Below, piece by piece: positions 1,186-58,600 of a stretch of DNA of 64,000 nt (within the stretch, counting starts at the first letter, position 1; the number at the start of each line of letters is the position of its first letter). A program made the translations under genes and the position numbers. The stretch comes from Turritopsis dohrnii. Lineage: Eukaryota; Cnidaria; Hydrozoa; Anthoathecata; Oceaniidae. The stretch spans positions 930,001 to 994,000 of the forward strand of contig BQMF02000053.1 of NCBI GenBank assembly GCA_027922465.2, written 5' to 3'. The notes under the pieces were generated by a model that saw nothing but the letters and a program-made list of their open reading frames with translations, was not told where the DNA came from and ran no database searches.

Positions 1186-2310
1186 TTAAACTGAAGTAGC
1201 TAACCACATTTTAAAATAGGCATATACAAGTTTGATATCCTTTATTGTTCTTGCAACAACTTCCAAATTGCTGTTATTGCATTTATCTGCTTTTCCTTTG
1301 GGATATGTACTTGGAAATTGAATGTTTTTGTTCCAGATATCGTTTTTTCGTCCTTCGCATGGACGTATAAACAGACTCTAAAACGGTAAAGAGGATATTT
1401 TGAGGATATTTTTTGAACTTCCTTTTGTGAAAGGTTTCAGGGACGCTTAAACAAAAAAAACAAACGTTTCGAACCTCGGTGTAATTTTTAAGGGCTTGAG
1501 AATCTTTGAGCATATTTTCGGACAATTTGTAGACAGGAACTAATAAACTCGGTCTGTTTTGTCCCCAATTTGTTGTCATTCTCTTCAAGGTAACTGCATA
1601 TTGTTCCACCACTTCATTCATGAATGTCATCATCTTAACCAGCTTTGTGAAACAATAAAGCGAATTTATATTGCAATACTGATATAATATGATAATAACA
1701 TCTCTATTGTTCTGAGTCACAAAACATTTAAGATTTTACTTACCGGAATGTTTTGACCTAGCTTATCCAATTCTTTGAAAACACGGACCGCACGTGCACA
1801 TTGACCAGTTACTTTCAGTGTGATACCATTCTGACAAAAAAGACGAGAAAGTATTTTCAATTATGGAAAAACTATGAATCCTTGATATCTAACAACTAAA
1901 AAGTATTACTATGTGTTGGTTTGCAGCAACAATATATCTTGATGTTTGAAACAGTTTCCTTTGACATTTCAATTTCAATTCGGCAATGTCACAGAAATTG
2001 TTAAACGTGTTCCTCTTATTAGGTATTAACTCCATCGACTCTGCAATTGTGACTGCCATCAAACAAACTAAAAACGGACATTTGTGCTTTTGAATCTTTA
2101 TACTTAAAGAGTATGTTCATCAGACAAATTGTTACCATTACGTTAATATTGTGAAAGCAGTTATAAAAGTAGTTGAGCAAATGACCCCCACTGAACTAAA
2201 CCAAACACATTTCACAAGGTTTACACAATAAAGTCTGATGGTAGCGATTTGTCAGACGAATAAAAGGTATCTCATGACTTACATCCAAAAGAAGTTATTG
2301 CAAATGACAT
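1186..2310 (-). CDS. Secreted helical (cytokine-like) protein, five exons
   Basis: Family not recognised by name. Exons on the minus strand: 2310-2283 (28 nt, begins ATG, donor GGAT|GTAAGT), 2067-1910, 1830-1744, 1678-1475, and a last exon ending in TAA at 1186. Exons 1-4 join cleanly in phases 1, 0, 0 and give 159 codons. The N-terminus is a typical signal peptide (starts MSFAITSFGF, hydrophobic to about residue 19). The mature part is Cys-containing and mostly amphipathic helix. The last exon carries DKCNNSNLEVV and then an aromatic-rich helix. Its junction is unresolved: the GAG|GT donor at 1475 is phase 0, whereas the AGs at about 1287-1310 open the helical frame in phase 1 or 2. A small indel or an unrecognised acceptor is therefore possible. 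The paralogue at 53063-55675 has the same 28-nt first exon and the same layout. A four-helix cytokine-like fold is inferred, not shown. Confidence 0.65.
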
Positions 2311-5298
2311 TTTTGATTTTTTTAACATCTCAGGTGCCATTTGGACTTGTGTCCACTAATGTTAATATATATACGATACTATTGCATAACGCCTTTGTTT
2401 GAAATTCATTTGCAGGTGCTTTCCCTATGCTTATATTTTACTAGAGAATTGCATCAGAGAATTTCATGTTACCTGGGATGGCCCCACAATCTTTTGGTGT
2501 TGTTCGGCAACCCTTTCTGTTTCAGTATTCGTTTCAGCGGAAGAAAATAGAAACATCATGAAAAGACATTCCATGATAAAATGAATTTTGATAGCCGTCA
2601 TAATTTTTATTCAGCATATGTTCATGGGGCAAGGAACTCATGCGATGTTTTATCATTGATGGCACCAGGTCCTTAACAAATGAAGAGAAGAGGAATAAAA
2701 ATGGGCAAACGTACTAAAAAACAACAAGCAATAACGTAAATTGATATATTTTCTTATTTTATGATTGTCTCAGATTCTTTCAGAAAATGCAACAGGGAAA
2801 AACAACATGAAAGTATTGATAAAACTAAACAGCGATCATGCATGATAATATACGTAATTCTTAACGTGCAACAATAGAGAAGACTCTTTAGTGGCTCCAG
2901 TAAAGGGAATTTTCTTAAGGACATGATACTTTTGATAATATAAATAACATTATGACTAAAGTAACATAAAGTAATTATATAGCAAGTATCACGTGATATC
3001 TTTAATCAGCCTATTGATAAATTCACTGCCTCAAAACCTTTCAATTTACAATATCTCATAGAATTGAATAAACAGCAATTCAGGCACTAATGTCATTAAT
3101 GCTTCATACTTACGAAGGTTGTAGACATTATATCCTCTTTTGTAAAGGTTTTGTATAGGTTCATCAAAAAATGCATGATATGCATCTATTGAAAAAGATA
3201 ATTCGTGAACAAAAGTGACCAATCGTAATGAATACAAAAAGACAGAGTGCTTAATTTGTTTGGACATCCATCATCTTTTTCGCAGCACTTTAGATAAAGT
3301 TTAACTGAAAACGTCTTAAAACAAACGAGAGATCAACAAAAGAGATCTTTCCTGTAAAATATTTTCCAAAATCAGATTCTTTGCATTAGTTTTAGAAAAT
3401 GACTCAGGACGTTCTTTGTTTTTGTTTTTGTTGTTATTATTTTTTTCAGAGTATATCATTCAAAAAAAATGTCAAGTATGTTTAAAATCCAACCAAATTC
3501 GTAACAGTACTGTAGTGTTTCATCGAAATAACGATGAAAATCCAAGATAAGATTTAAACGAATAGGGAATTTTCCAATGAATATAGCGAAACTATTCTCT
3601 GCTTTTTCAGCAAATCAACCCAGAAAAGAACAGGAAAAAAACCGTTAATAAACTCCAAATAAACCGAATGACTGAGCAATGATTTATTAACGGATGAATT
3701 ATAGTAAGTTCAACACATGTTATCGTTTGCTATATGCTTTTTTTTTCGTATGGGAAGTAAAAGAACCACAAATGAAAAATGTTGAGCTTGTTAGTTCATT
3801 GATATCGTTTCGTAACTTTTGTTTGTTTCATACTACGCAGCTTCTGATAGAAGATTGTTTCTTGATTGTTTCTTGATAAATTGTATTGCATAAATTCACA
3901 ATAAACCTACGTTCTACTTATGAAAGAGGAAGCGACAATATCAAACTATGATTACAAAAGTCCAACGTGACAAAAACATTTACTTAGATCAACCAAGAAG
4001 ACGCTACATGGACACTTCTCTAAAGGAAGGTATGAAAGATAAAGCAAACAAAACTCCAGAGATACAAAGATTGGATCATTGCATTTGATAAAAGCTTGTT
4101 AGCGGCGAAAGTATGATGGAATGGCTGTCAAGCCAATGCTCCAATCAGGACATTTAATAAAAAGACTGTAAAGTTTAACAAACAACAGTCAACCTGCTAA
4201 AATTGACGGCTTGTATGTGCGAATCCTGTTTGCATAAAAAACAAACTTTAGCTATCTCAGGAAGTAGATAACATTCACTTTTCCAAGAGTCATCAGTTCT
4301 TCGTACTTTAAGCTTTTCCAGACAACAGATGGAAACCCTATGGTTCAAAGTTCATTTTCTTTTGAGAGAATAACGATTTTCAGCTAAAATTTAAGATCCT
4401 AAAAGTAAAGTGTTAATTCTTTTGCTTCTGTCGCGATAATGATCCAAATGTTAGAAAGGCATAATATTGTTCACTTTCTCCGGAGTATAATTTCAAATTT
4501 GAGGGTCGATGCTATGTGCCTTATGCTTTTACAATACAATATTTTTCTAATGAAAACTTTCGTGACAACTTTAAATCCGAACGAAACATGACATTGATTT
4601 TGATGACGTCATAGCCGCAGTACAATTTAGACCCAAATTTTGCGTTACCCCATCACCTGTATCGCGGACCCTAAAAAACGTCAGTTATCCCTATTGGTTC
4701 CCGAGATATGCAGTGGTTCCCCCGTGATATGAAAACATGAACACAGACTCTTCTCCTACATCCAACTCTGTCGAAAGATATTCTGTAATGTTCCCTGAGG
4801 ACACATTTGCTAACTTGAGTCTGGATACGGTAGGCATTGCGGGAAATTCAAATGCTGTACAAAGCAGAACTAGGGATAACGCTTTAACCATATTATATAT
4901 ATGGTATTATACCTCCATGCTTTAACATGGAGAGATAGGGCAGAACTGACCGATTTTGGGCAAGTGTAGTACTAGAAGACTTAATAATAAAGCAAAACGG
5001 TCGAATCGAGTAAAAAGCACAATTGATACGTTATAAATATTGAAAACTTGTGTTCTGGGAAGGTTTTCTGCAAGAAAGTTATTTTGGGTTTGATTTTGAG
5101 CATTGTGGTCAAAATTTGGTCCATTCAAAACAATGACGTCAGTTATTGTTTATTTGTTGATAACTTCTAAGACACATAAAAATACAAACATTGACAAAAA
5201 TATTATTTCAATTAGAGCAAAAAGTTTCTTCAAGCATTTTTGCCAAAACAGCAGACCTAATTTTTGTTGACACTATTCAAAGCAATATTTCCCCAATA
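2311..5298. other. Mostly featureless; possible exon fragment at 3046-3267 (-)
   Basis: At 3267-3110 (minus) there is a helical, exon-like reading frame (MSKQIKHSVFLYSLRLV...) with a GTAAGT donor inside it near 3114. After a possible acceptor near 3026 it is followed by a short frame reading EFINRLIKDIT. This may be a decayed relative of the secreted helical gene next door. The phases do not join, so it is not called as a gene. I see nothing else supportable. Confidence 0.25.
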
Positions 5299-9411: not shown

Positions 9412-10128
9412 TTTAAAACTTTTTTATTTTTTTAAAAACATTTTTTACAACTTTAAGCTTATAACTTAACGATTTACACAAATAAGAAAAACGAATACTT
9501 GGTTCTTTAAAATTGGATGACATATTTATACCATAATGTGCTTCATTCCTTTTCATTCATTCAGTCATTCCTTTTGACAAAGGAACAGCGTATTTCTTTT
9601 TAATGGTGTAGCTACACGAACTATTCCATTACAAAGGCAATAGTTCGTGCCTTACTTAGTGAACAATTAAGACTTAATAAAAAAGAAACAATTTGGAGTG
9701 CGCATGCGCAATGAAAGAAAACAATCCTGGACACTCCATTTTGATCTCCCCAGTAGTGAACGAACTTTTCAGTCACAAAGGAACAAGAGTGCACGATTTC
9801 TACAACAATCAAACATGGAGAACATTGCAGGTTGATTAAGCGTGTCAAACCTCTGTTCATTGTCAAACTATTCCCAAGGGCCTTTCAACCAAAGTTTGAA
9901 TGTGGAAAGCGACGCGAGTCAAAATTGTAAAGCTACAATAAGGTAAATATTTAACAGCTGAAGACTTCTGTTGACGCAATCCTTCGCGCAGTTTTCTAAT
10001 TAAGGAAAAGTTTCTTATGAAAATGTGATCAGTAGTAGCATGTGAAAATCCAATGATGATATTAGAAATTTTAAAATTATTTATTTGGAAAACTTATTGT
10101 TATTGTTGCTGTAATAAATTTCTTTCAA
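9412..10128. other. No gene recognised
   Basis: A spacer between the Crypton-like relic and the minisatellite. A short imperfect inverted repeat around 9608-9652 (ACGAACTATT...AATAGTTCGT) is the only structure I see. Confidence 0.3.
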
Positions 10129-10810
10129 GTTTTGACATAATATGAATATCGGAAGAGAGGTTTTGACATAATATGAATATCGGAAGAGGAGTTTTGACAT
10201 AATATGAATATCGGAAGAGGAGTTTTGACATAATATGAATATCGGAAGAGGAGTTTTGACATAATATGAATATCGGAAGAGGAGTTTTGACATAACATGA
10301 ATATCGGAAGAGGAGTTTTGACATAACATGAATATCGGAAGAGGAGTTTTGACATAACATGAATATCGGAAGAGGAGTTTTGACATAATATGAATATCGG
10401 AAGAGGAGTTTTGACATAATATGAATATCGGAAGAGGAGTTTTGACATAACATGAATATCGGAAGAGGAGTTTTGACATAACATGAATATCGGAAGAGGA
10501 GTTTTGACATAATATGAATATCGGAAGAGGAGTTTTGACATAACATGAATATCGGAAGAGGAGTTTTGACATAATATGAATATCGGAAGAGGAGTTTTGA
10601 CATAATATGAATATCGGAAGAGGAGTTTTGACATAACATGAATATCGGAAGAGGAGTTTTGACATAACATGAATATCGGAAGAGGAGTTTTGACATAACA
10701 TGAATATCGGAAGAGGAGTTTTGACATAACATGAATATCGGAAGAGGAGTTTTGACATAATATGAATATCGGAAGAGGAGTTTTGACATAATATGAATAT
10801 CGGAAGAGGG
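10129..10810. repeat. Minisatellite, 22 copies of a 31-bp unit
   Basis: The unit begins GTTTTGACATAATATGAATA and ends TCGGAAGAGGA. It repeats exactly 22 times (682 bp) with no length variation. Units differ almost only at one position, AATATG (T) or AACATG (C). From left to right the order is TTTTTCCCTTCCTCTTCCCCTT. The first unit ends GAGAG and the last ends GAGGG. Because 31 is not a multiple of 3 and the minus strand lacks stops, all three minus frames stay open through the array and spell the same 31-residue repeat. That is a by-product of the unit, not evidence of a protein. Confidence 0.97.
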
Positions 10811-11950
10811 TCAACTCAGGAGAGGGGATAAGTTGCCACAGGGGAGGGGGAGTCAGAAAATCTTTGAAAAAACGGTTGATATATTTGTGAACAACTCTTT
10901 ACTGTCTGCGCTAATATATATCATTGGTAAATCTATTTGACAATTTTCAGATGAAAGCAATTCAGGAATCACGGCTATAGTAATCTGATAGCAGAGTTCT
11001 GAACAATTAGATTTGCACAAACACAGTAGGCAAAATTATCAAAAGGTCATTGCGGTGGAGAGCATTTCTATTGAAATAGTGGGTGTATTTCTATAGAAAA
11101 ACACTCCTTCTCAGTGTTTTTTCAGCAAATTTGCCCACTGGGAAGTGTGTTAATTTGCCAATTTGAAACCACTGAACTTTTTTGGTGAAAAGTCTTATAA
11201 AGTGCTTGAAAAAATGTGACGGAAATGTGCGAAGCGCGTATTTTTAGTTCTGCAAATCCCAAAGCAAAAAATGATTGAAAACTTTTTCACAAGAAATTTG
11301 ATTTCTTTTTTAATTTGGTGCACACAGTATATGAATTTATGCAAAAACTTATAAAGTATTAGCGAAACCACAATATAAACGAAACATTGCGGAAAGCGGA
11401 TGTGGTAACCCCTGCATAGAATGAGAAATGGATCTGGAAACAAGTAGCTGACCAATCAAAACAGCAGACAAATGAGGTTAAAGAAATTAATGGAATTTTC
11501 GTAAAGATTCGTTGCAGAAAACCTGGCTGACCTTTCTCACAACCTTTATTACGGTTCATTATCTTTAAGACATGCAAGTTTTATAACCTGTTATAACTTG
11601 ATTTTCAAGCTTCAAGGGAAACCTTTATAAAATTTGATCATAAAATCTACTTCCATGGTCTTCAAAAGCTTGTTATATGAACGTATTAATAAATTAAACC
11701 TCTTGAAATTCACGATACAATTTATCCAGAGATTTATCCAGAGATTTTGCGTTTTTATTGTCTATGACAATATTATACAGAATTTGATTCAATAATGTTG
11801 ATAGAATAAAAGAGAGGAGTCTTATCCTAAAAAATGCACAATCATCGATGTCGATGAGACTCTTACGAAGCGAAGAAAAAATGGCTGATTTCACGAATAT
11901 AAAATGTTAAAAAAATAATATACAAAAAAAACAACATATAATTGTTTGTC
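10811..11950. repeat. Mostly featureless; partial CCCAG-type MITE at about 11075-11142
   Basis: The stretch ending GCAAATTTGCCCACTGGG (11142) matches the right end of the 121-bp elements at 14542 and 15006. A left end is not clear. I see no other gene or repeat. Confidence 0.4.
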
Positions 11951-19120: not shown

Positions 19121-19193
19121 GGGTCGGTAGCTTAGTGGTTAGAGCAATCGCCCGGCAAGCGAGAGGTCGTGGGTTCGAGTCCCACTCGATCCG
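19121..19193 (+). tRNA. tRNA-like sequence, probably SINE-derived
   Basis: 73 nt fold as a cloverleaf: acceptor GGGTCGG/TCGATCC with wobble pairs, D arm GCTT/GAGC, T arm GTGGG/CCCAC. The A box TAGCTTAGTGG and B box GGTTCGAGTCC match the pol III consensus exactly. The anticodon loop CCGGCAA would give GGC (Ala), but position 33 is C rather than the near-universal T, one anticodon-stem pair is mismatched, and no T-run terminator follows. A SINE module is more likely than a working tRNA gene. Confidence 0.5.
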
Positions 19194-29942: not shown

Positions 29943-30686
29943 TTATATTTTAATGTTGAAATATCTAAGAACCAACTTCATAAGATCGTCATTATTCTCC
30001 TTCTCAAAGGATTTCAATGCAATTGTTTCTTCATCAGCTGTTATGATGTTGTTTTTCTTCAGAAGCGGTATCTTCACGTTGATCATTTTATTTACTGTTA
30101 CTTCAGGATGGCCTTGCATCGATAATATTTTGTCACTGTATGACAATATTTCAAAGTCACATCCTTTTGGAGCTTTCCCAAGACACATCGCATTTGATGG
30201 CTTTTCTATAACTTGCTCATAATGTGATTGCATGATTTGAAACGAAGCTGTATCACCAAAAGTATCCCGATAATATTTCTTAGCAAGAAGCTCAGTTGAT
30301 ACTTTAACTTCTCCACATCCCCAAATGTACTTATCACACGGATTGCGGTGAACTATTCCTCCTAACGACTTTGCAATTAACTGATGTCCAAAACAGATAC
30401 CAAATATCTTCGGACCATCTAAATTGTAATATACATTTCGGACAAATTCTTCTAGTTTGCGTATCCAGGGAAGTTCGTCATTCACACTGTAGCGAGATCC
30501 ACATATAATTACCCCAGCAAATTGATTAACGCTTGGTGGAAGTTTTTGGTCTATTGCGCAGAAAGGAACAAGTTCACATACATCTTGAGATACGAAGCTG
30601 TAGAACCTATTTGTTATACATTTCGCAATGCCTTCCATTCCTCCATAGTTAGGATCATCATCAGTAACAAGAAGAGCCAACTTCAT
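29943..30686 (-). CDS. Class I glutamine amidotransferase-like protein, copy 1
   Basis: 247 aa, single exon, ATG at 30686 (the extension to 30701 uses TTG and is not needed; the paralogue has the same start). It has the class I GATase fold: GICFGHQ holds the nucleophile Cys98, and QGHPEV holds His193 and Glu195 of the triad. No synthetase domain follows, so it belongs with stand-alone family members such as gamma-glutamyl-peptidase-like proteins, which are cytosolic and hydrolyse gamma-glutamyl bonds. The actual substrate is unknown. No signal peptide. A closely related copy lies 15.7 kb away in the same orientation (45629-46372). The frame is intact; lack of introns could reflect retrocopy origin or the family's normal state. 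Confidence 0.88.
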   Translation of the reverse strand: MKLALLVTDDDPNYGGMEGIAKCITNRFYSFVSQDVCELVPFCAIDQKLPPSVNQFAGVIICGSRYSVNDELPWIRKLEEFVRNVYYNLDGPKIFGICFGHQLIAKSLGGIVHRNPCDKYIWGCGEVKVSTELLAKKYYRDTFGDTASFQIMQSHYEQVIEKPSNAMCLGKAPKGCDFEILSYSDKILSMQGHPEVTVNKMINVKIPLLKKNNIITADEETIALKSFEKENNDDLMKLVLRYFNIKI

Positions 30687-33137
30687 TTTTCTGATGTGCA
30701 ATGAACTTTAACTAAAACAAAAATCAGTTTTAAATCAAAGAAGAACAGAAAGTTACATCATGATCATGTCATGCAAAATCTTTTTATAGTTGTCAACTTC
30801 TTGTAATCTTATCATAACAAATATAGACAAATATAGATTCTAGAGCATTTGAAAGTTAATTGATTAAGTTTTCTCTTCATTGTCTAATTTGTAAAAATTA
30901 TAGCATTGAGCTTTCGTCGTTTTTAATGATATATTAGATTTGAAAAATTGTACATTGACGTCATGTCATGTATTTTCGTATTATTGATAGACAAATGCTT
31001 GGAAATTATACTTGGAAAACACTCAAGTTGGATAATGAAGTTGTTATGGAAAATAAACTTTAGTTAATCATCATATGCCAGTTTATATTTATATTTCAAC
31101 ACAATTAAGAATGATAAAATTTTTAAAAAACTAAGTAAAAGCTTTTCGATTATTTCATCTTCATCTTACATTAAAATTATAAAAGTATTGAAGATGAAAT
31201 AGTCGAAAAGTTTTTGCTTAGTTTTTTAAAAAATTCGTCGTTCTTAATCGCGTTGAAGAATAATATTTAGTTAATAAATCATAATAAAACCTTTCCTTTT
31301 GAACTTAAAAAGTTGAACACTATCATTCAATATTGTATGGATTAGAACATATGCGAAAAAATAAACTTCTTTCACAAATGGTTTTTTCATTTGAAAATAT
31401 TTATTAGCTACCAAGTATATTCGACAAGAAGGAATTCTTACTTTTGTCAGATTTTACCAATTCTTCTTCCATTACGCACAGGTCGTTGAAAACTAAGGCT
31501 GACTATTACTTCTCATTATACAACGCTGTAAGATGTCGAATGGCATAAATAGCAATTAATTTGTGATTTCCCCATAAACCGAATTTCCCTCTATTGTTTG
31601 TACATTTGTTAGCAAAAAAGTTGGGTTGCTTTAGAAATGAATTTAAACTTAACATTCTGAAGAACAAAAGGTAAAAATTATGATCATCAATCCTTCTCGA
31701 ATTTCGAATAGTTATTTACAATTTTGAAGAAAAGTAACCTGTGTACGATGATAAGCATATTTTTATCTGTATTTTTGAAATAATGAAGTAACTTAAGCAA
31801 TCATAAAGAAATTGCTTAAATTTTATTCCCTTTTTGTGGGAAAAAATTTAAAGCTATCCCTCGTTAAAATACTAATCGTCAGCATTTTCACGTCAATAGT
31901 ACGGGGTTTTTTTAAATCTAAGTATCTTCAGGAAATTCACGTTCTCACTTAGTTTTTAGATTCCTGGGATCCTGCCAGAAGAATCTGGAAGCAGCTGAAT
32001 CGAGACTTCTATGCATTAAACGAAGAATTTTTTCTAAATTCTATAACTCAATCACATGATTTGTTGTCAAACTAATGTAAAATTTATAACTTATAATTTA
32101 TTGTAGTCGATGACTACAATCTTGGACAATATAATTCCAGTTCCAACTTAAAGTTTTGCCACATATTTTTGTGCAGGATTGTAGTTCTAAAATTGTAATA
32201 TGAAGCTCTAATTTCCTGCCAGCAAACTATCGAATCAAACTTGCAAAAACAATGACATTTCCTTGTTAAATTTCCATTATGAGATAATTTGGCTTTAAAA
32301 CGTTATATACGTTTGTAAATAAAAAACATGACCTCTCAACATAGAAGATCTAGCAACGGAAATTAGTATAACAGACATAACACTTCAATACACATGAAAT
32401 TGAGTTCCCAAATTGAGATGGGTGTATACACTTTTAACATGCTATTTCCTTTTGTTATGTAACTGATAGCATACAGAATTTTCACCATATTACGTATGAG
32501 CAGACTTGTACCAAGCCTCGTCATTTTCTTTTTGCACCTTTATATATATATAAAAAAGACAACTTGCTCTGGGTGAGGAGGTTGTAGGAACGCGAACGTC
32601 TATTCACTCTTTTAAATAGAACAAGAGATTTAGGAGGAAGCCGATGCAATTTGTCCATAAAGAAAACAACAATTTATTAAGAACAGTTTTATCTAGGCCA
32701 ATCACAAATCTAAATACGAAAAATTCTGTTAGCATTGTGTTAGTCCGCATCTCCATCCTGGTGGTGCACGCCATGCCGTTAATTAACCTTTCAGAATGGT
32801 AAGTCATTTTGTCAAGGTTTACTTTGGAAAATCGGGAAATCGTGTTTAAAATGAATTCAGCAGATTTGTAGTTTGTGTTATGAAAAAGATGACTATAGAA
32901 TAAAGATATTTCATATAGATATAAAGTTAATCTTCAAACCATTACGTCTGTTTATTCCCTTTTAATGGGAAAATTGAAATGTTCTTGTGAAATACATTGC
33001 TGTTACATAAGAATATGTCGGAAGGTTTTCCCCCTACGAAAAGAAAAATTGAAGATTCTTTTCTTTAATCCAGTGCAAACCAAATGTAGATTGAATCATC
33101 GGAGATTTAATCCATGTTATACTCCGTTACACTGTAA
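30687..33137. repeat. No gene; foldback at 31095-31257
   Basis: 31095-31163 and 31189-31257 are 69-bp inverted arms (TTCAACACAATTAAGAATGA versus its diverged complement; TTTTCGATTATTTCATCTTC versus GAAGATGAAATAGTCGAAAA) around a 25-bp loop. The rest is AT-rich. The open frame at 32604-32807 (minus) matches nothing I know. Confidence 0.6.
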
Positions 33138-34708: not shown

Positions 34709-34856
34709 TCACTTTGTAATTCAATTGTTATTTATTATAACTTCATGTTATAAAAATAGAAATAATGAAAAAAAAGTGCTCACTGGCTGGCGTTTGTCAG
34801 GTAACAAAACGTTGAATTCAAATTAAAAAAGTAGAGGAAACACTTGTCTATCAGTC

Positions 34857-36285
34857 ATGGCTGAAAACGAAGTAGTAAAGTCCACATCTCATAAAAATGA
34901 GAAGATAAAATCGTATACTTTATCTTATAAAATACTTGTGATCGAAAATGCTAAAAAGTCATCAATTGGAGCAGCTGAAAGAAAGTTTGGAATTGACAGG
35001 AAAAGAATAAGAGAATGGGTGAAGAATGAAAAAGAAATACGCAATAAAGTCAGGTCTAAAACAGGAGGTAATTCTTCGAAAAGACTCGATGGTGGTGGAA
35101 GAAAAGTCGGTGATATGGATTTAGAGCAAATGTTTCTTGATTGGATAACAACACAACGATCAAGAAATTTACGAGTGTCAAGAAAAACAATCATGAGAAA
35201 AGCAAAGAACTATGCAGAGGAAAAAGCTGCAAGTAAGGGTCGAAACAACGAATTCATTGCAAGCAAAGGATGGCTAGAAAACTTTATGTCACGAAATGGG
35301 TTATCACTTCGTCGTCGTACAACTGAAGCGCAAAAAACGCCAGAACAAATCATCAATAAAGTGATATCATATATTCTTTATGTTCGCCAATTGAAAGAAA
35401 GGAACAATTATGATTTGGATTGTATAATTGCGATGGATGAAACAGCCGTGTGGAACGATATGTTGTCGAATACTACAGTTACCGGAAAAGGTGCAAAGTC
35501 TGTTGTATTGAAAACTACAGGTCACGAAAAAAACAGAGTTACCGTCACTTTGGCTGCCAAAGCAAATGGTGATAAACTTAAGCCATATATCGTCTTTCCG
35601 GGAAAAAAACGAGAGGTCCAAAGCTTGAAGAAAGATCCCGAGGTAAAAAATCGTTGCTACATAGAATCAACTACTAGCTAACGGTTGGATGAATGAGATC
35701 ACAACCGTAGATTTGATCGAAAATGTTTTAAAAACTTTTACTTTTGGTAAAAGAAGATTATTTGCATGGGACAGTTTTAGAGCTCACCTTACACAAAGTG
35801 TGAAGGAGTTGCTTCATAAAGGTAAAATTGATGCCGTTGTTATTCCTGGCGGTGCCACGGGACATATCCAGGCGCCTGATGTTTCTTGGAATAAGCCGTT
35901 GAAAGATCAACTGCGAGAAATGTATGATAAATGGATGGATGAAGGGCCCCACACCGAAACAAAAGCAGGAAATATGCGTGGACCTCCACTAAAATTGATT
36001 GTTCAATGGATTCTTCAAGCGTGGGCAGATCTCGATCGTGATATAATCAAGAAATCATTCCGTTGCTGTGCTTTATCAATTGCAAATGATGGAAGTGAGG
36101 ATAGTGAGATTACATGCTTCAAACCGGGAAAACCACTAAGCTCTGGATTAGAAAAGTTGACAGCTGCAAGGAAAGATGCTGATCAGGCCCTTGTTGACCC
36201 TTTCGACGAGTCAGATATCGAAGACGATCCAAATCTCCTCATCGATTCGGATCGGGAAGAAGACGAAGACGTAGAAATAGACTAA
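34857..36285 (+). pseudogene. Pogo/Tigger-type DDE transposase, frameshifted
   Basis: From ATG 34857: a Psq-type helix-turn-helix (residues about 20-62, YKILVIENAKKSSIGAAERK), a CENP-B-type DNA-binding part (about 85-155, FLDWITTQRSRNLRVSRKTI and SKGWLENFMSRNGLSLRR), then the DDE catalytic domain. First Asp in IIAMDETAVWND, second in LFAWDSFRAHLT, third in HIQAPDVSWNKPLK. The tail is acidic (SDIEDDPNLLIDSDREEDED). The first frame stops at 35679-35681 and the second frame takes over at 35680. One extra base around 35679 accounts for both, and otherwise the gene is open. This is a recent inactivation, a sequencing error, or an allele. Cut-and-paste transposition at TA is the family's function. 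Confidence 0.88.
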
Positions 36286-45628: not shown

Positions 45629-46372
45629 TTATAATTCAATGTTGAAATATCTGAGAAGTAACTTCATAAGTTCGTCATTGTTCTCTTTCTCAAAGGATTT
45701 CAATGCAATTCTTTCTTCATCAGATGTTATAATATTGTTTTTCTTCAGAAGCGGCATCTTTATATTGATCATTTTATCAACGGTTACTTCAGGATGGCCT
45801 TGCATCGATAATATTTTGTCACTGTATGACAATATTTCAAAGTCACATCCTTTTGGAGCTTTCCCAAGACACATCGCATTTGATGGCTTTTCTATAACTT
45901 GCTCATAATGTGATTGCATGATTTGAAACGAAGCTGTATCACCAAAAGTATCCCGGTAATATTTCTTAGCAAGAAGCTCAGTTGATACTTTAACTTCTCC
46001 ACATCCCCAAATGAACTTACCACACGGATTGAAATGCACCCTTCCTCCAAACGACTTCGCAATTAACTGATGGCCAAAACAGATACCAAATATTTTTGGC
46101 CCATCCAAATCGTTATATACATTTTGAATAAATTCTTCTAGTTTGCGTATCCAGGGAAGTTCATCATTCACACTGTAGCGAGATCCACATACGATTATCC
46201 CAACAAATTGATTAACGCTTGGTGGAAGATTTTGGTTTATTGCGTAGAAAGGGACAAGTTCACATACATCATTAGATACGAAGCTGTAGAACCTATTCGT
46301 TATACATTTCGCAATTCCTTCCATTCCTCCATAGTTAGGATCATCGTCAGTAACAAGAAGAGCCAACTTCAT
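45629..46372 (-). CDS. Class I glutamine amidotransferase-like protein, copy 2
   Basis: 247 aa, single exon, ATG 46372, with an in-frame stop 12 nt upstream that fixes the start. The catalytic Cys98 (GICFGHQ), His193 and Glu195 (QGHPEV) are all present. The 29943-30686 paralogue has the same length and residues. The proteins differ mainly in the first 125 and last 50 residues. In between, 227 bp (45787-46013 versus 30101-30327) differ at one base, which is silent. Both copies look functional. Homology fades just upstream of the ATG, so the promoters are likely different. Confidence 0.88.
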   Translation of the reverse strand: MKLALLVTDDDPNYGGMEGIAKCITNRFYSFVSNDVCELVPFYAINQNLPPSVNQFVGIIVCGSRYSVNDELPWIRKLEEFIQNVYNDLDGPKIFGICFGHQLIAKSFGGRVHFNPCGKFIWGCGEVKVSTELLAKKYYRDTFGDTASFQIMQSHYEQVIEKPSNAMCLGKAPKGCDFEILSYSDKILSMQGHPEVTVDKMINIKMPLLKKNNIITSDEERIALKSFEKENNDELMKLLLRYFNIEL

Positions 46373-46674
46373 TTTTCTGATTTCATACTTGCAAACAACA
46401 GTCTTAATAATTTGACGTCAGTTCATTTCTAGCGAAAATAATGTAAGAAACGAAAATGAATTCTCACATACATTTTACGTCATAATCATGTGTTGTGAAG
46501 TAAGTTATGAATTAATTGTAAACTTATCACTTAATAAGAAATTTAATATGAAATAAATCTCTTAAAGCTTATACGTATTTTATGTAAGCGTCAGTCAAAT
46601 CAGTTAAGCCTTAACATATGGAGAAAATTCTCTTGAATTTGTGACCAGTTATTGGTTGATTTTAATTGAAGATT
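46373..46674. other. Upstream region of amidotransferase copy 2, no motif recognised
   Basis: AT-rich. I cannot point to a supported promoter element. Confidence 0.3.
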
Positions 46675-53062: not shown

Positions 53063-55675
53063 TTAGTATATTTGTAAATATAAATTTTTAGATTTAAGTT
53101 TTGTGGTGAATATCCAATCTTTGGTGGCCCTGTAAATCAATGCAAGATCATCAAGTATGAATCTAATAAACTCATTTTCGTTTTTGTAGCATGTGTCATT
53201 CAATTTTGACGGTGCTTGATAGCTTGGCGGATATTGCTGTGAAGTGAAATAGTTGTCGTGATGGCATAAACATGGAGGTTTAAAAAGTTTCTAAACAAAA
53301 AAGTATTAACAAAATTAGCATGACTTATGTGTGTACAGCATAGTTAAAGTTTGAAAAGCCTACAGACAAACCAACAAATAAATAAACAAAAAACAAACAA
53401 GCAAGTGAAAAATGGAATTTTTGTTGCATAAATTCATTGTACCTTTCAATCTTAGACGAATTTGGCGATCCATAAAATCTCAATTTAAAGATATTTCAAT
53501 ATTATTTTTACTGAACCCTTGTGTTACGATTCTCAATAGACCTTTCCCGAATTTCTGTTTAAACACCGTGTTATGGCCTAGCTTCTAAGTTTCGCCTCTT
53601 TTTCAAACTCTTAATTACTTCTAATTATTCCACTGGGGAACTGAAAAAACGAGTAACTATTACTTACTGAGAACATTATGCAATTAGAAAAACAATAAAG
53701 AACATAGAAACGAGGCGAAACTTAGAAGCTAGGCCATAACACGGTGTTTAAACAGAAATTCGGGAAAGGTGTATTTAATGGAGTGACTTTCGATCGTGGA
53801 TCCAGATCTTAAATAGATTTCTGAACAAACTTTGTTTTGTTGATATATAAGAAGTGAGTTGGTTGTCAATATTTGTAATACAAACAACAGTAGCAAACCT
53901 CTCTTTCCATCATGAACATTCTAACACTTTTTGAAAGAACACCGATCAACGGTTCAAGTTGATGTTCGTTTTTTGTCAACTTTAATTTCCTCAAGGTGGC
54001 AAGATACTGATTCAGAACAACATGGGTGAAATGAAGTCTTTTTGTCAACTAAAAGAAAAATATCATCTCATACATGGCTATCAAAAGTTTATCGTAACTT
54101 TGAACAAGTATACAAATGCCAAGCATTCCGCTTTTTATACTAACTGCATCAATTGCTTTTTCTTATACGAATACATAAATAGCTCTACGAAAGTATTGGG
54201 CACTATTTTTGACCAGAAGAAATAAAACAAATCAATAACTTCATTAATAAACAGATCGCGAGTCTTAGTTGAAACGCTGTATTAAACAAGCTAGGTCATG
54301 ATACAATATTTTAACTTGTACTGAAGATTTGTTTATTTATAAGTTTCTAAAAAAAACGTTAGGTGTATACTCACGCTAAAGTTGTATGCAGATTTGTTTG
54401 TTTCCAAAAATTTTCTCGCCTTTTGACAAGTTATTTGAAGGCTTGGCTACAAAATAAAATCAAGTTTTTTCAATTTTAAGGCTACTGGACACGCGACAGA
54501 TACTAAAGAATTGATATGTTAACAATTATCAACTCACATAAGATTTTTGCATGTGTACAATGCTTCCATACGTTGGAATCAGTTTCAAGAATATTGTTTG
54601 CGTTATTCCAGAAATATCACAATAACCACCACACTGAGATGATAATGGTGTGGTATTTCCATTTTTGAGTGGAAAACAATTCATAACCACAACGCACATT
54701 GCTGAAAAATACAATAACCATTATTCCAAACAACTTTACCAAAAAAAACAATCACACTTGATGAAAATAAATCTGTACTCGGATATCATCAAAAGGCTAC
54801 TTGTCATGATTAATCTTCATTAAAAATGCTATGCAAATATTAAGTAATCCCCAATTCACATTATCTGTTAAAATTTTGTTCAGTTGTGTTATAGCTTCAT
54901 GATTCAGTGAAATACAAATTTGGTTGCTTTAAATTTAGCTTGCTTGTTTTCCCACACAATCACAAAATAAAATTCGAATAACACTCTGATACCATAACAC
55001 GAAGAAACAACTTTGTAGAAAACAATTTTTTTTTATCCAACATCACGTCGTAAATTTCAGGAAGCGTTAGAACAAACACAAACCGAGTGTAATTTAACGA
55101 GGGTTAAAGTAGCTATTGTCACAGATAATTAGATAATTATTGTTCTTCAGAAAATAACAAGACAAGTTTTACTTCCGTTCTGTTTTCCATTGCATGGCGA
55201 AAGAGCTGTATGTTCTGGTAAGTTGCAGATGTTAGCAGAATTTTTCAATTATGTATTTCACAATATAAGGTATTTTTAAATGTTTTAAGGAATCTTTGAA
55301 AATAACTGCTGCCAGCAAGTGCTGTCTTACGCAAATAATTTGTTACAATTATATATCCATAACTAACTTACCACGTGGAGAAAGCAAACATTTTGTTTGT
55401 GTAAGGAGAAATTGGAAAAAAATTATATGATTTAATATAACTGTTTATCATATTAACTTCACTGTTTTCCTGTTCCTAGAAAATATGTTCACAGTAATTT
55501 ATATAATGTATATACTACCAATATATCAAAATTAATCTTAACCTTTCTTCTTGAACTTTCTGCCTCAATTAAATATTTCGTTCCTAGAATTGTGTCTAGT
55601 TTGTAAATTCTACTTCAGAAGTTATCAGATAGGTTAAAACAGCTTACCTATAAATGCCACCTTTAAGAAAGACAT
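53063..55675 (-). CDS. Secreted helical (cytokine-like) protein, five exons, intact
   Basis: Minus-strand exons: 55675-55648 (28 nt), 54701-54538, 54446-54375, 54048-53899, 53236-53063 (TAA). All junctions are GT/AG (ATAG|GTAAGC, TTTTCAG|CA, TTAT|GTGAGT, TTTGTAG|CC, TAGC|GTGAGT, CTTTTAG|TT, GAGAG|GTTTGC, TTCACAG|CA). Phases are 1-0-0-0, giving 195 aa. Residues 1-18 are a signal peptide (MSFLKVAFIAMCVVVMNCFP). The rest has few Cys and four predicted amphipathic helices: about 40-62, 66-105, 112-136 and 160-185. The paralogue at 1186-2310 shares the 28-nt first exon, the MSF start, and a Cys-Ala-Arg/Cys-Gln-Lys-Ala-Arg patch in exon 3, plus a Cys before the last helix. Vertebrate long-chain class I cytokines (IL-6, G-CSF) also have five exons with phases 1-0-0-0. 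Family assignment is inference; no sequence-level match was seen. The MITE at 53539-53771 lies in intron 4. Confidence 0.8.
53539..53771. mobile_element. MITE with about 57-bp TIRs, TA target duplication, in intron 4
   Basis: The ends GACCTTTCCCGAATTTCTGT (left) and, on the other strand, CACCTTTCCCGAATTTCTGT lead through TTAAACACCGTGTTATGGCC to TAAGTTTCGCCTC. TA flanks both sides. It is the best-preserved copy of the family also at 33138, 33943 and 62339. Confidence 0.9.
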
Positions 55676-58600
55676 GTTGCTTACGAGAACTGATGGATGT
55701 AAATGCTGAGCTCTGCTTTTATTGCGTTTAGAAAGGGGATAACCCGGGAAATGAGCGCACCTTACATAAGCCTATGTTCACAATACGTCACAATATTGTT
55801 CACAGAAATTCAGGGGATACGCAATGTCACTAAATATAGGACGCGCCAACTTTTTTGATTGACGTTTTGCATTCATGAGTTCATTGGGTAATTCCAGTTT
55901 AGGTTTCGTCCTACATTTTCCAATTAATAGCGGGGACAATTAAAATCATGTGTTGAAATCCTGTATTTTTCTGCCTACAGCAATAAATAAATCTCATAAC
56001 GTGAAATCGTTTTCGTGACACTGTTTTGGGTTTATTGGAATAATAAGGAAAACGTTAATTTTCTTTAACAAGGAAGTGTAAACTGAAATTTTCTTTAAAA
56101 GTTGCAACCACTATGAGACCAATATTTGATGAACCTAATAGCCTTAATGATGATTGAGTTATTAAAATCAGATAAATAAAAACAGATATTGAAATAACAA
56201 AGGGTTTATGTATATAATTAAATTGCAAATAAATGCCTAAAACGATTTGTAAGCTGACCTTACAAAGAGTAACTGATAAAATTCTAGAATTATTAGATGC
56301 CAATTAAAAACTGTATGAATTGAATATTCCATGTGTTTCTAAAAGGCAAGGAATGTCTTGGTTGAATTTTTGTGCCATTTATGAGTGTTTTCTAGACAAT
56401 TTTCGCTTTTATGATTGATAGGCTAATCAAAGGTTGGTCTACGTATGGTTAGGAAAGCATACTTTGTTTTTCTTCTTTCTTTCAATTTTTATGTTGATAA
56501 GCAATGACCTCATATGAATTTCAGCCGAAGGAAGCGAAACTTGAAACAAAACTTGAAACAATAAGTCTAAATTCGACACTTGATTGTATTCAGACATGAT
56601 TCCCTGATTGTGTTTTATCTAAGTGTGTGATCGTGTTTTGTCTGGCTGAACCCTTTGATTGATGAATAATTGAATACTGAATAATCAAGTGCATATAGAT
56701 ATCTTAAGGTGAAATCATTCTTAAATTGTCTGAAATTAGGATGAAAATATGTATATTTTTTAAATAGAAATTTTAATAGTGATGAAGAACTCTTCGAAAT
56801 GTCATCGTAATTGACTTTTACTTTTGAGTTTAGTAATTCTTCATCTTTTGGAACGTTTTCTTCATTTTTTTGGTTTTGAATTGGCTAAGCAGACAATATT
56901 GAAACACCAATATCAGAAACACAACAAACCCACGTACAATTAGCGAAGGAATTTCTAACAGATAAATAATATGATCCAATGCTGCATAGGGACAGTACCT
57001 CCCGAAACATTTAGTGATTTTAATTTTGATGACATTTTCACTTTTCTAGCATCACGTGATAGAACCAGCTTTGTATGAAAGAAGGATGATACTTCAATAT
57101 TTTAACATTTTGATAATTTGATAATTTTGATAAAGCTTTTTTGGTCTTCTATTATTTTTTTTTTAAGAAACATACTGTCTTTTCGCTGCTGACTATTCAG
57201 TGTAGTATCTCAATTTTTGTTACCTTTAAGATGACAAACAATAATGAAAATTATGGAGAATCTCATAATTGTTCTCGATCTGTATAATAAATGTATTTGC
57301 ATACTTTCCATTAATAATTTAAAGACTTTAATTTTCCATTAAATTCGGCATATCTCCTGATCCATTACTGAAAGGTGCAAATTAAGGCTACGTATGAGTA
57401 AATTATCATACACGTACGCTCCTAGATTCCCTTCAGTTCCTCTGCCATCGCTATTGCAGTTTCGTCCCTAAATTAGATTCCAGATACAAATTAGTACCGA
57501 AAGCACCCTATCACTAGGTCCGGAAGCATGAGAAATTTTCACATTGTTTTGAAAGCCAACCAAGTGCTAAGAGTCCATAGTTTTTTTCCAAGAAATGACC
57601 TACGATTTGGTCACGGAAACCTACGAGGCGGAAAACGGATTTGCCGATTTTGGCATAAACGTTTTCGGAATATCACCGGAAATGTCTCTTAGAAAGTCGA
57701 ACTGGCTTAATGTGATGATTAAAGGATTAGCGTAAACCTTATCGTTATCAAGATTTTTTTGACGAGAAAGGTTCTGATTTTATATTTATTCATCTTTTTC
57801 ATGAAAAAGAAGCATTTCATAGCTACACGCAAAACTAAATCTACACAAGTAATAGAAAATTATTTTACCATAGTGTGATACGTTGATAACAATTTTTTTA
57901 AAGGTTTTTAAAAACTTCATGTTTTGGTGTTTGAATGTCAATTCACATTAAATCAATTAAATTCGTGGCTTAAGTTTTCACGGTCCCATAGAATGTCTTG
58001 GAAATATATGATGGCGAAATTGTGACTTATGAACAACAGCATATCTATCTTTGCTAGGAATAGGCATCCTACGACTGATGTTGAAAACGCACTAATGATG
58101 TAAGATTATCAAGTGGGTACACTTGACAGAAATAAAAGCTATGCTATACTATAACCACCTATAATAAATGTTCTTTGAAATTAAATAAATATATGCAGCA
58201 TCCTTTAAACTAATTGCCCTTTAAAATATATTTTTTAAAAATGCAGAAAAGGCTCATAAAACTCAGAGAAGTCACTTGAGGATACTTGTGAAGGTATCAT
58301 TTTTTAACCTATGGTCACGGAAGGCTGCAAAGTCATTCATTTTCATTCCACTGAAATTGATAACATACAAAGCTATATATTGCCATCATCAAGTATTACT
58401 TAAAGTAAAGCGAAAACGTGGAGTGAACATCTTTGACTTTAGATCCAAAAGGAGGACTATAATAGAAAATAATGCCGACCATGGTTTCAATAATGTCTTT
58501 TTTATTCTTCATTCTTCGGCTTAATTATTATTATTAATAATAATTTCTAAATCAATGTTACTTTCTACATACATTGAAACCACTATGCGACATTATTTTC

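What the first reader, a model, noticed from the sequence alone, without database searches (positions are those of the whole stretch)
53063..55675. Intact five-exon secreted helical gene with cytokine-like architecture
Five exons join with clean GT/AG sites into 195 aa without a stop. There is a signal peptide split by a phase 1 intron after 28 nt, then only phase 0 introns, with roughly one helix per exon. IL-6/G-CSF-type cytokine genes have this exon number, phase pattern and size (established knowledge). Such genes are not well described outside vertebrates and some arthropods, so a cnidarian-like example would be new if the fold holds.
Basis: partly seen in the sequence, partly recalled or inferred. 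Interest (0 to 1): 0.9.

Follow-up and report, generated by a model that had tools for sequence, protein, structure and literature searches.

The report
Probable cnidarian helical cytokine gene pair
Two strongly diverged five-exon genes with open reading frames, about 51 kb apart, encode small, likely secreted proteins that are predicted, from gene layout and cysteine spacing alone, to be helical cytokines in what is probably a cnidarian, where such a signalling protein would be new.

Summary
Exons are 28/164/72/150/228 nt, phases 1,0,0,0.

Five exons, a short phase-1 first exon, phase 0 thereafter, and LIF/OSM-like cysteine spacing fit an IL-6/LIF-type cytokine. A STAT gene is present; JAK is unresolved. 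I rate a cytokine-like secreted ligand at 0.6.

The parts
55648..55675 (-). Gene A exon 1, 28 nt, MSFLKVAFI + 1 nt (start of signal peptide), phase-1 donor GTAAGC
54538..54701 (-). Gene A exon 2, 164 nt: rest of signal peptide, CDI motif, putative helix A; phase 0 out
54375..54446 (-). Gene A exon 3, 72 nt: putative A-B loop with conserved Cys71; phase 0 out
53899..54048 (-). Gene A exon 4, 150 nt: two putative helices (B and C); phase 0 out, donor GTTTGC
53063..53290 (-).
   Evidence: start supported by paralog B
55691..55723 (-). Gene A core promoter candidate: TATA-like AATAAAAG 32 nt before an initiator-like TCAGT, 16 nt from the initiator A to the ATG
   Evidence: pattern found 8 times in 184 kb, both strands
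55736..55745 (-). GGGTTATCCC, NF-kB/Dorsal-like site just upstream of the TATA-like element (motif name recalled; suggestive only)
   Evidence: 6 strand matches at 4 places in 184 kb
53535..53775 (.). MITE-like inverted repeat inside intron 4 of gene A (82-nt arms, 90% complementary)
2283..2310 (-). Gene B exon 1, 28 nt, MSFAITSFG, phase-1 donor GTAAGT (one of 4 of 80 candidates with the top donor score; chosen partly by likeness to A)
1910..2067 (-). Gene B exon 2, 158 nt
1744..1830 (-). Gene B exon 3, 87 nt
1475..1642 (-). Gene B exon 4, 168 nt, donor GTTCGA
1186..1377 (-). Gene B exon 5, 192 nt with stop

Best explanation
Gene A (55675-53063, minus strand) and its diverged paralog B (2310-1186) encode proteins that are likely secreted and are predicted to fold as IL-6/LIF-type four-helix cytokines, which would act by bringing together chains of a cell-surface receptor that likely signals to STAT. 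Shown here: both genes have five coding exons with the same phases (1,0,0,0) and three coincident intron positions; both proteins start with a hydrophobic stretch; three cysteines (A: 37, 145, 172) align in both and a fourth (A71/B73) aligns exon by exon; the genome holds a STAT gene and a third, decaying copy of the family. Inferred: secretion, the helical-bundle fold, the disulphide pairing (N-terminus to CD loop, AB loop to start of helix D, as recalled for OSM and LIF), release as a signal, and any receptor. A TATA/initiator-type promoter with a kB-like site in front of gene A would fit an inducible gene but is weak evidence.
Against: No sequence link to any cytokine: Pfam 0 families for A and B; PDB 0 for A and one unrelated short match for B at E 0.077; NCBIfam two sub-cut-off bacterial matches for A, none for B; none of 88 and none of 623 candidates in the protein set. 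hhalign of A+B with LIF, OSM, IL-6, G-CSF and CNTF was no better than with five shuffles of LIF. The proposed helices were drawn by eye, and only 3 of 10 segments reach p below 0.05 for helical periodicity. Mature A has 6 cysteines and B 5, so some are not shared. JAK not identified (8 of 137 kinase matches read); receptor search unanswered. A 2025 review places assembly of the complete cytokine pathway within Bilateria (PMC12026705, passages).
Confidence: 0.6

Rival explanations
1. A lineage-specific family of secreted, cysteine-containing helical proteins with no signalling role (for example a mucus, nematocyst, eggshell or defence protein) whose gene layout resembles cytokine genes by convergence.
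For: No sequence or profile link to any cytokine; strong divergence and a decaying copy also fit defence-type gene families.
Against: The combination of short phase-1 first exon, phase 0 thereafter, two putative helices in exon 4 and four conserved cysteines with LIF/OSM-like spacing is more specific than 'secreted helical'; only two intact copies were found, though that search can miss diverged ones.
Confidence: 0.28
2. A four-helix ligand of a receptor tyrosine kinase (CSF-1/SCF/FLT3L/IL-34 type) rather than of a class I cytokine receptor.
For: Those ligands also have cysteines near the start of helix A, near helix B, after helix C and near helix D (recalled); kinase matches are abundant in this genome (137 to a JAK2 kinase query, not all tyrosine kinases).
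Against: Distance between the second and third conserved cysteines is 74 in A and 81 in B, close to LIF and OSM (71, 78) and longer than recalled for SCF/CSF-1.
Confidence: 0.08
3. A chance chain of splice-like sites, or a pseudogene, with no real product.
Confidence: 0.03

Closest known systems
IL-6 / G-CSF (CSF3) genes of vertebrates
   Same: Five exons and four introns (human IL-6: PMC5165036; G-CSF: PMC6389648); protein of about 210 aa; recalled: tiny first coding exon in phase 1, then phase 0, exon 4 of about 147 nt holding helices B and C.
   Different: No detectable sequence similarity; recalled IL-6 and G-CSF disulphides lie within the AB loop, unlike the spread-out cysteines here; a 2026 survey finds IL-6 family cytokines only in vertebrates (PMC13203501, passages and part 1 of the Discussion).
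LIF / oncostatin M
   Same: Cysteines before helix A, before helix B, after helix C and before helix D with similar spacing (positions computed; pairing recalled).
   Different: No sequence match; LIF and OSM genes have three exons (recalled), not five.
Drosophila Upd ligands (Domeless/Hop/STAT92E)
   Same: Invertebrate ligands of a gp130-like receptor feeding STAT (PMC13203501; PMC3296744).
   Different: Reported for insects in what I read; not compared by sequence here.
IL-10 / interferon-lambda (class II) genes
   Same: Five exons dividing the helices (PMC2654155, passages).
   Different: Those introns split no codon (same passages), whereas A and B have a phase-1 first intron; interferon-lambda 2/3 do add a short 5' exon that splits a codon, making six.

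Membership tests
Class I helical cytokine (IL-6/LIF-like, long chain) | Four-helix up-up-down-down bundle | not testable with these tools
Class I helical cytokine (IL-6/LIF-like, long chain) | Secreted, N-terminal signal peptide | tested here: inconclusive
   Hydrophobic N-terminus split by intron 1 in A and B; no signal-peptide predictor available
Class I helical cytokine (IL-6/LIF-like, long chain) | Short signal exon ending in phase 1, remaining introns phase 0, five coding exons (IL-6/G-CSF layout; phases recalled) | tested here: met
   A and B; coincident columns of introns 2-4
Class I helical cytokine (IL-6/LIF-like, long chain) | Binds a class I receptor with a WSXWS motif | not tested
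   PF09240 search of the genome did not complete
Class I helical cytokine (IL-6/LIF-like, long chain) | Signals through JAK and STAT | tested here: inconclusive
   STAT gene present; JAK not recognised in the 8 kinase loci read of 137 matches; no functional test
Vertebrate IL-6 / LIF-OSM / CNTF sequence families (Pfam) | Match to the Pfam family model | tested here: not met
   0 Pfam families at E up to 10 for A and B
LIF/OSM | Two shared disulphides, N-terminus to CD loop and AB loop to helix D | tested here: inconclusive
   Cysteine positions fit (three align in A2, the fourth exon-wise); pairing unknown

The most novel reading that the evidence does not exclude
A pre-bilaterian, IL-6/LIF-type helical cytokine family, with conserved gene architecture, in a cnidarian: evidence that the ligand side of cytokine-STAT signalling predates Bilateria, and a concrete candidate ligand for an ancient class I receptor such as the orphan CRLF3.
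Probability: 0.3. Interest if true: 0.92.

Novelty: new variant of a known kind. Interest (0 to 1): 0.74.

Why it matters
A 2026 survey reports IL-6 family cytokines only in vertebrates, although JAK and STAT already co-occur in sponges and cnidarians (PMC13203501), and a 2025 review puts the complete pathway in Bilateria (PMC12026705). CRLF3, a class I receptor-like protein found from cnidarians to mammals, has no identified native ligand (PMC6797617; PMC12026705). If A and B are helical cytokines, the ligand would be as old as the receptor, and ligand-receptor pairing becomes testable in one animal. The paralog also gives a practical handle: the two-gene profile, the intron positions and the four cysteines can be used to look for relatives in other cnidarians, where the plain sequence searches made here failed.

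Tried and rejected
Rejected: an exon 1 for B at 4891 (MVKALSLVLL, donor GTACAG), used provisionally and replaced; the B sequence in alignment A1 and therefore carries a provisional N-terminus, and the aligned part is unaffected. One search started exon 5 three bases too late (53287); corrected. A phospholipase-like 'CLCHHD' in A is not conserved in B and was dropped. C335 (E 4.95) is a chance-level match. C65 (E 0.35; exon-2 profile E 0.016 in L025) is left unresolved. Profile comparison with known cytokines gave nothing. A 184-kb scan with exon profiles found no further copy near the window (best others E 0.066, 0.074, 0.42 and 0.49 for exons 4, 5, 3 and 2). Promoter motifs are post hoc. The GFP-family search meant to help identify the host (PF01353) did not complete. 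Papers: PMC3296744, PMC4690019 and PMC1963337 were seen as passages only; PMC8063046 as the start of its abstract in listings. Among the rows shown by searches I saw no paper on a cnidarian helical cytokine; these lists were capped (20 of 85, 20 of 15,978, 25 of 612, 25 of 225, 20 of 113, 14 of 15) and the library lacks most subscription journals. Searches were for gene structure.

Full report
What was checked. The window lies in a 436-Mb genome of 891 contigs (C53:930001-994000). Exons 55675-55648, 54701-54538, 54446-54375, 54048-53899 and 53290-53063 (28, 164, 72, 150 and 228 nt) join without a stop into 213 aa; intron phases are 1, 0, 0, 0.

A second gene. tblastn of the 213-aa protein against the window gave, besides itself, a match at 1374-1192 on the same strand (E 0.010). 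Reading that region revealed a second gene, B: exons 2310-2283, 2067-1910, 1830-1744, 1642-1475 and 1377-1186 (28, 158, 87, 168, 192 nt), phases 1, 0, 0, 0, 210 aa.

Other copies. In the whole genome A finds only itself plus a chance-level match on C335 (5 matches). B finds itself, C807:85678-85851 at E 1.3e-10 with 47% identity, a weaker exon-4 match beside it (E 0.337) and a stretch on C65 (E 0.35) (7 matches). Neither gene found the other in these searches, so more diverged copies may have been missed. The C807 copy, C, has a 28-nt first exon and an intact exon 2, a stop codon in exon 3, a diverged exon 4 and no recognisable exon 5 in the roughly 1.4 kb fetched beyond: it looks like a decaying gene. 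B against C gives dN/dS near 0.20 over 30 codons of exon 2 and 0.17 over 32 codons of exon 4, the best-aligned parts, with dS near saturation. Exon profiles found no further copy in 184 kb around the window.

What it looks like. Both proteins have a hydrophobic N-terminus, then a CDI motif, a putative helix A, an AB-loop segment with a cysteine, an exon 4 with two putative helices, a proline- and cysteine-containing loop, and a last putative helix ending in K-x-W. Three cysteines (A 37, 145, 172) are invariant in the alignment and a fourth (A71/B73) aligns exon-wise. Spacings are 34-74-27 in A and 38-81-26 in B, against 43-78-40 in OSM and 42-71-32 in LIF counted from cysteine 18. Mature A has two further cysteines (33, 147) and B one (44) that are not shared. 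In OSM and LIF the four positions form N-terminus to CD-loop and AB-loop to helix-D bridges (recalled). IL-6 and G-CSF genes have five exons (PMC5165036; PMC6389648); that their first coding intron is phase 1 and the others phase 0, and that exon 4 carries helices B and C, is recalled. IL-10 family genes have five exons with no codon split (PMC2654155), so the class I layout fits better.

What is missing. Pfam, PDB, NCBIfam and the large protein set gave no cytokine relative. Profile comparison with five human cytokines was indistinguishable from five shuffled controls. Amphipathic periodicity at 100 degrees is significant in only 3 of 10 segments drawn by eye, although the best angle lies at 100-110 degrees in 7 of 10. 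Therefore it cannot be filed as a member of a named vertebrate cytokine family; the claim is that it is built like one and would work like one.

Pathway and host. One STAT locus carries STAT_alpha and STAT_bind over their cut-offs (in one search, 2 of the 4 segments of that locus that were scanned). A JAK2 kinase query returned 137 matches; the 8 loci read look by eye like Src-type, Shark-type, receptor-type and serine/threonine kinases, and no JAK was recognised, which does not show absence. The receptor-family and GFP-family searches never returned. A neighbouring CRAL-TRIO/GOLD gene has 8 database relatives: five, among them the best four, carry no name, two are Nematostella vectensis and one is Bradybaena similaris, a snail. 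A cnidarian is likely but not shown.

Verdict. The interpretation as a helical cytokine is the best single explanation (0.6) and would be notable: a 2026 survey found IL-6 family cytokines only in vertebrates (PMC13203501), a review places the full pathway in Bilateria (PMC12026705), and CRLF3, present from cnidarians to mammals, lacks a known ligand (PMC6797617). All papers were seen as passages, with part 1 of the Discussion for PMC13203501.

Noticed in passing
window 4906-4694, minus strand: An open frame beginning MVKALSLVLLCTAFEFPAMP... with a hydrophobic N-terminus just upstream of gene B; possibly a separate small secreted product.
   Followed up: partly
window 29943-30707 and 45629-46417, minus strand: Two very similar single-frame glutamine amidotransferase-like genes (Pfam GATase for the first, the only one scanned), apparently a duplication lying between genes A and B.
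   Followed up: no
window 34827-36285, plus strand: A DDE_1 transposase-like gene in two overlapping frames (second part over the Pfam cut-off; the first not scanned).
   Followed up: no
window 10081-10898, minus strand: A long tandem repeat open in three frames, each reading variants of DIHIMSKLLFRYSCYVKTPLPIFMLCQNSSS.
   Followed up: no
window -10931..-10494 (+), 87867-88301 (+), 100082-100606 (-), in flanks L006, L010, L011: Three small secreted-looking frames that resemble DAN/gremlin-type cystine-knot BMP antagonists around the window (by eye).
   Followed up: no
window -57793..-56885, minus strand (flank L002): A FoxN-like forkhead domain frame (by eye).
   Followed up: no
L032 (C37) and L033 (C45): Nearly identical kinase genes on different contigs, suggesting uncollapsed haplotypes or recent duplications in this assembly; one search lists other matches of equal score on different contigs.
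   Followed up: no
window 19121-19193, plus strand: A tRNA gene, the only Rfam match over its gathering score in the window.
   Followed up: no
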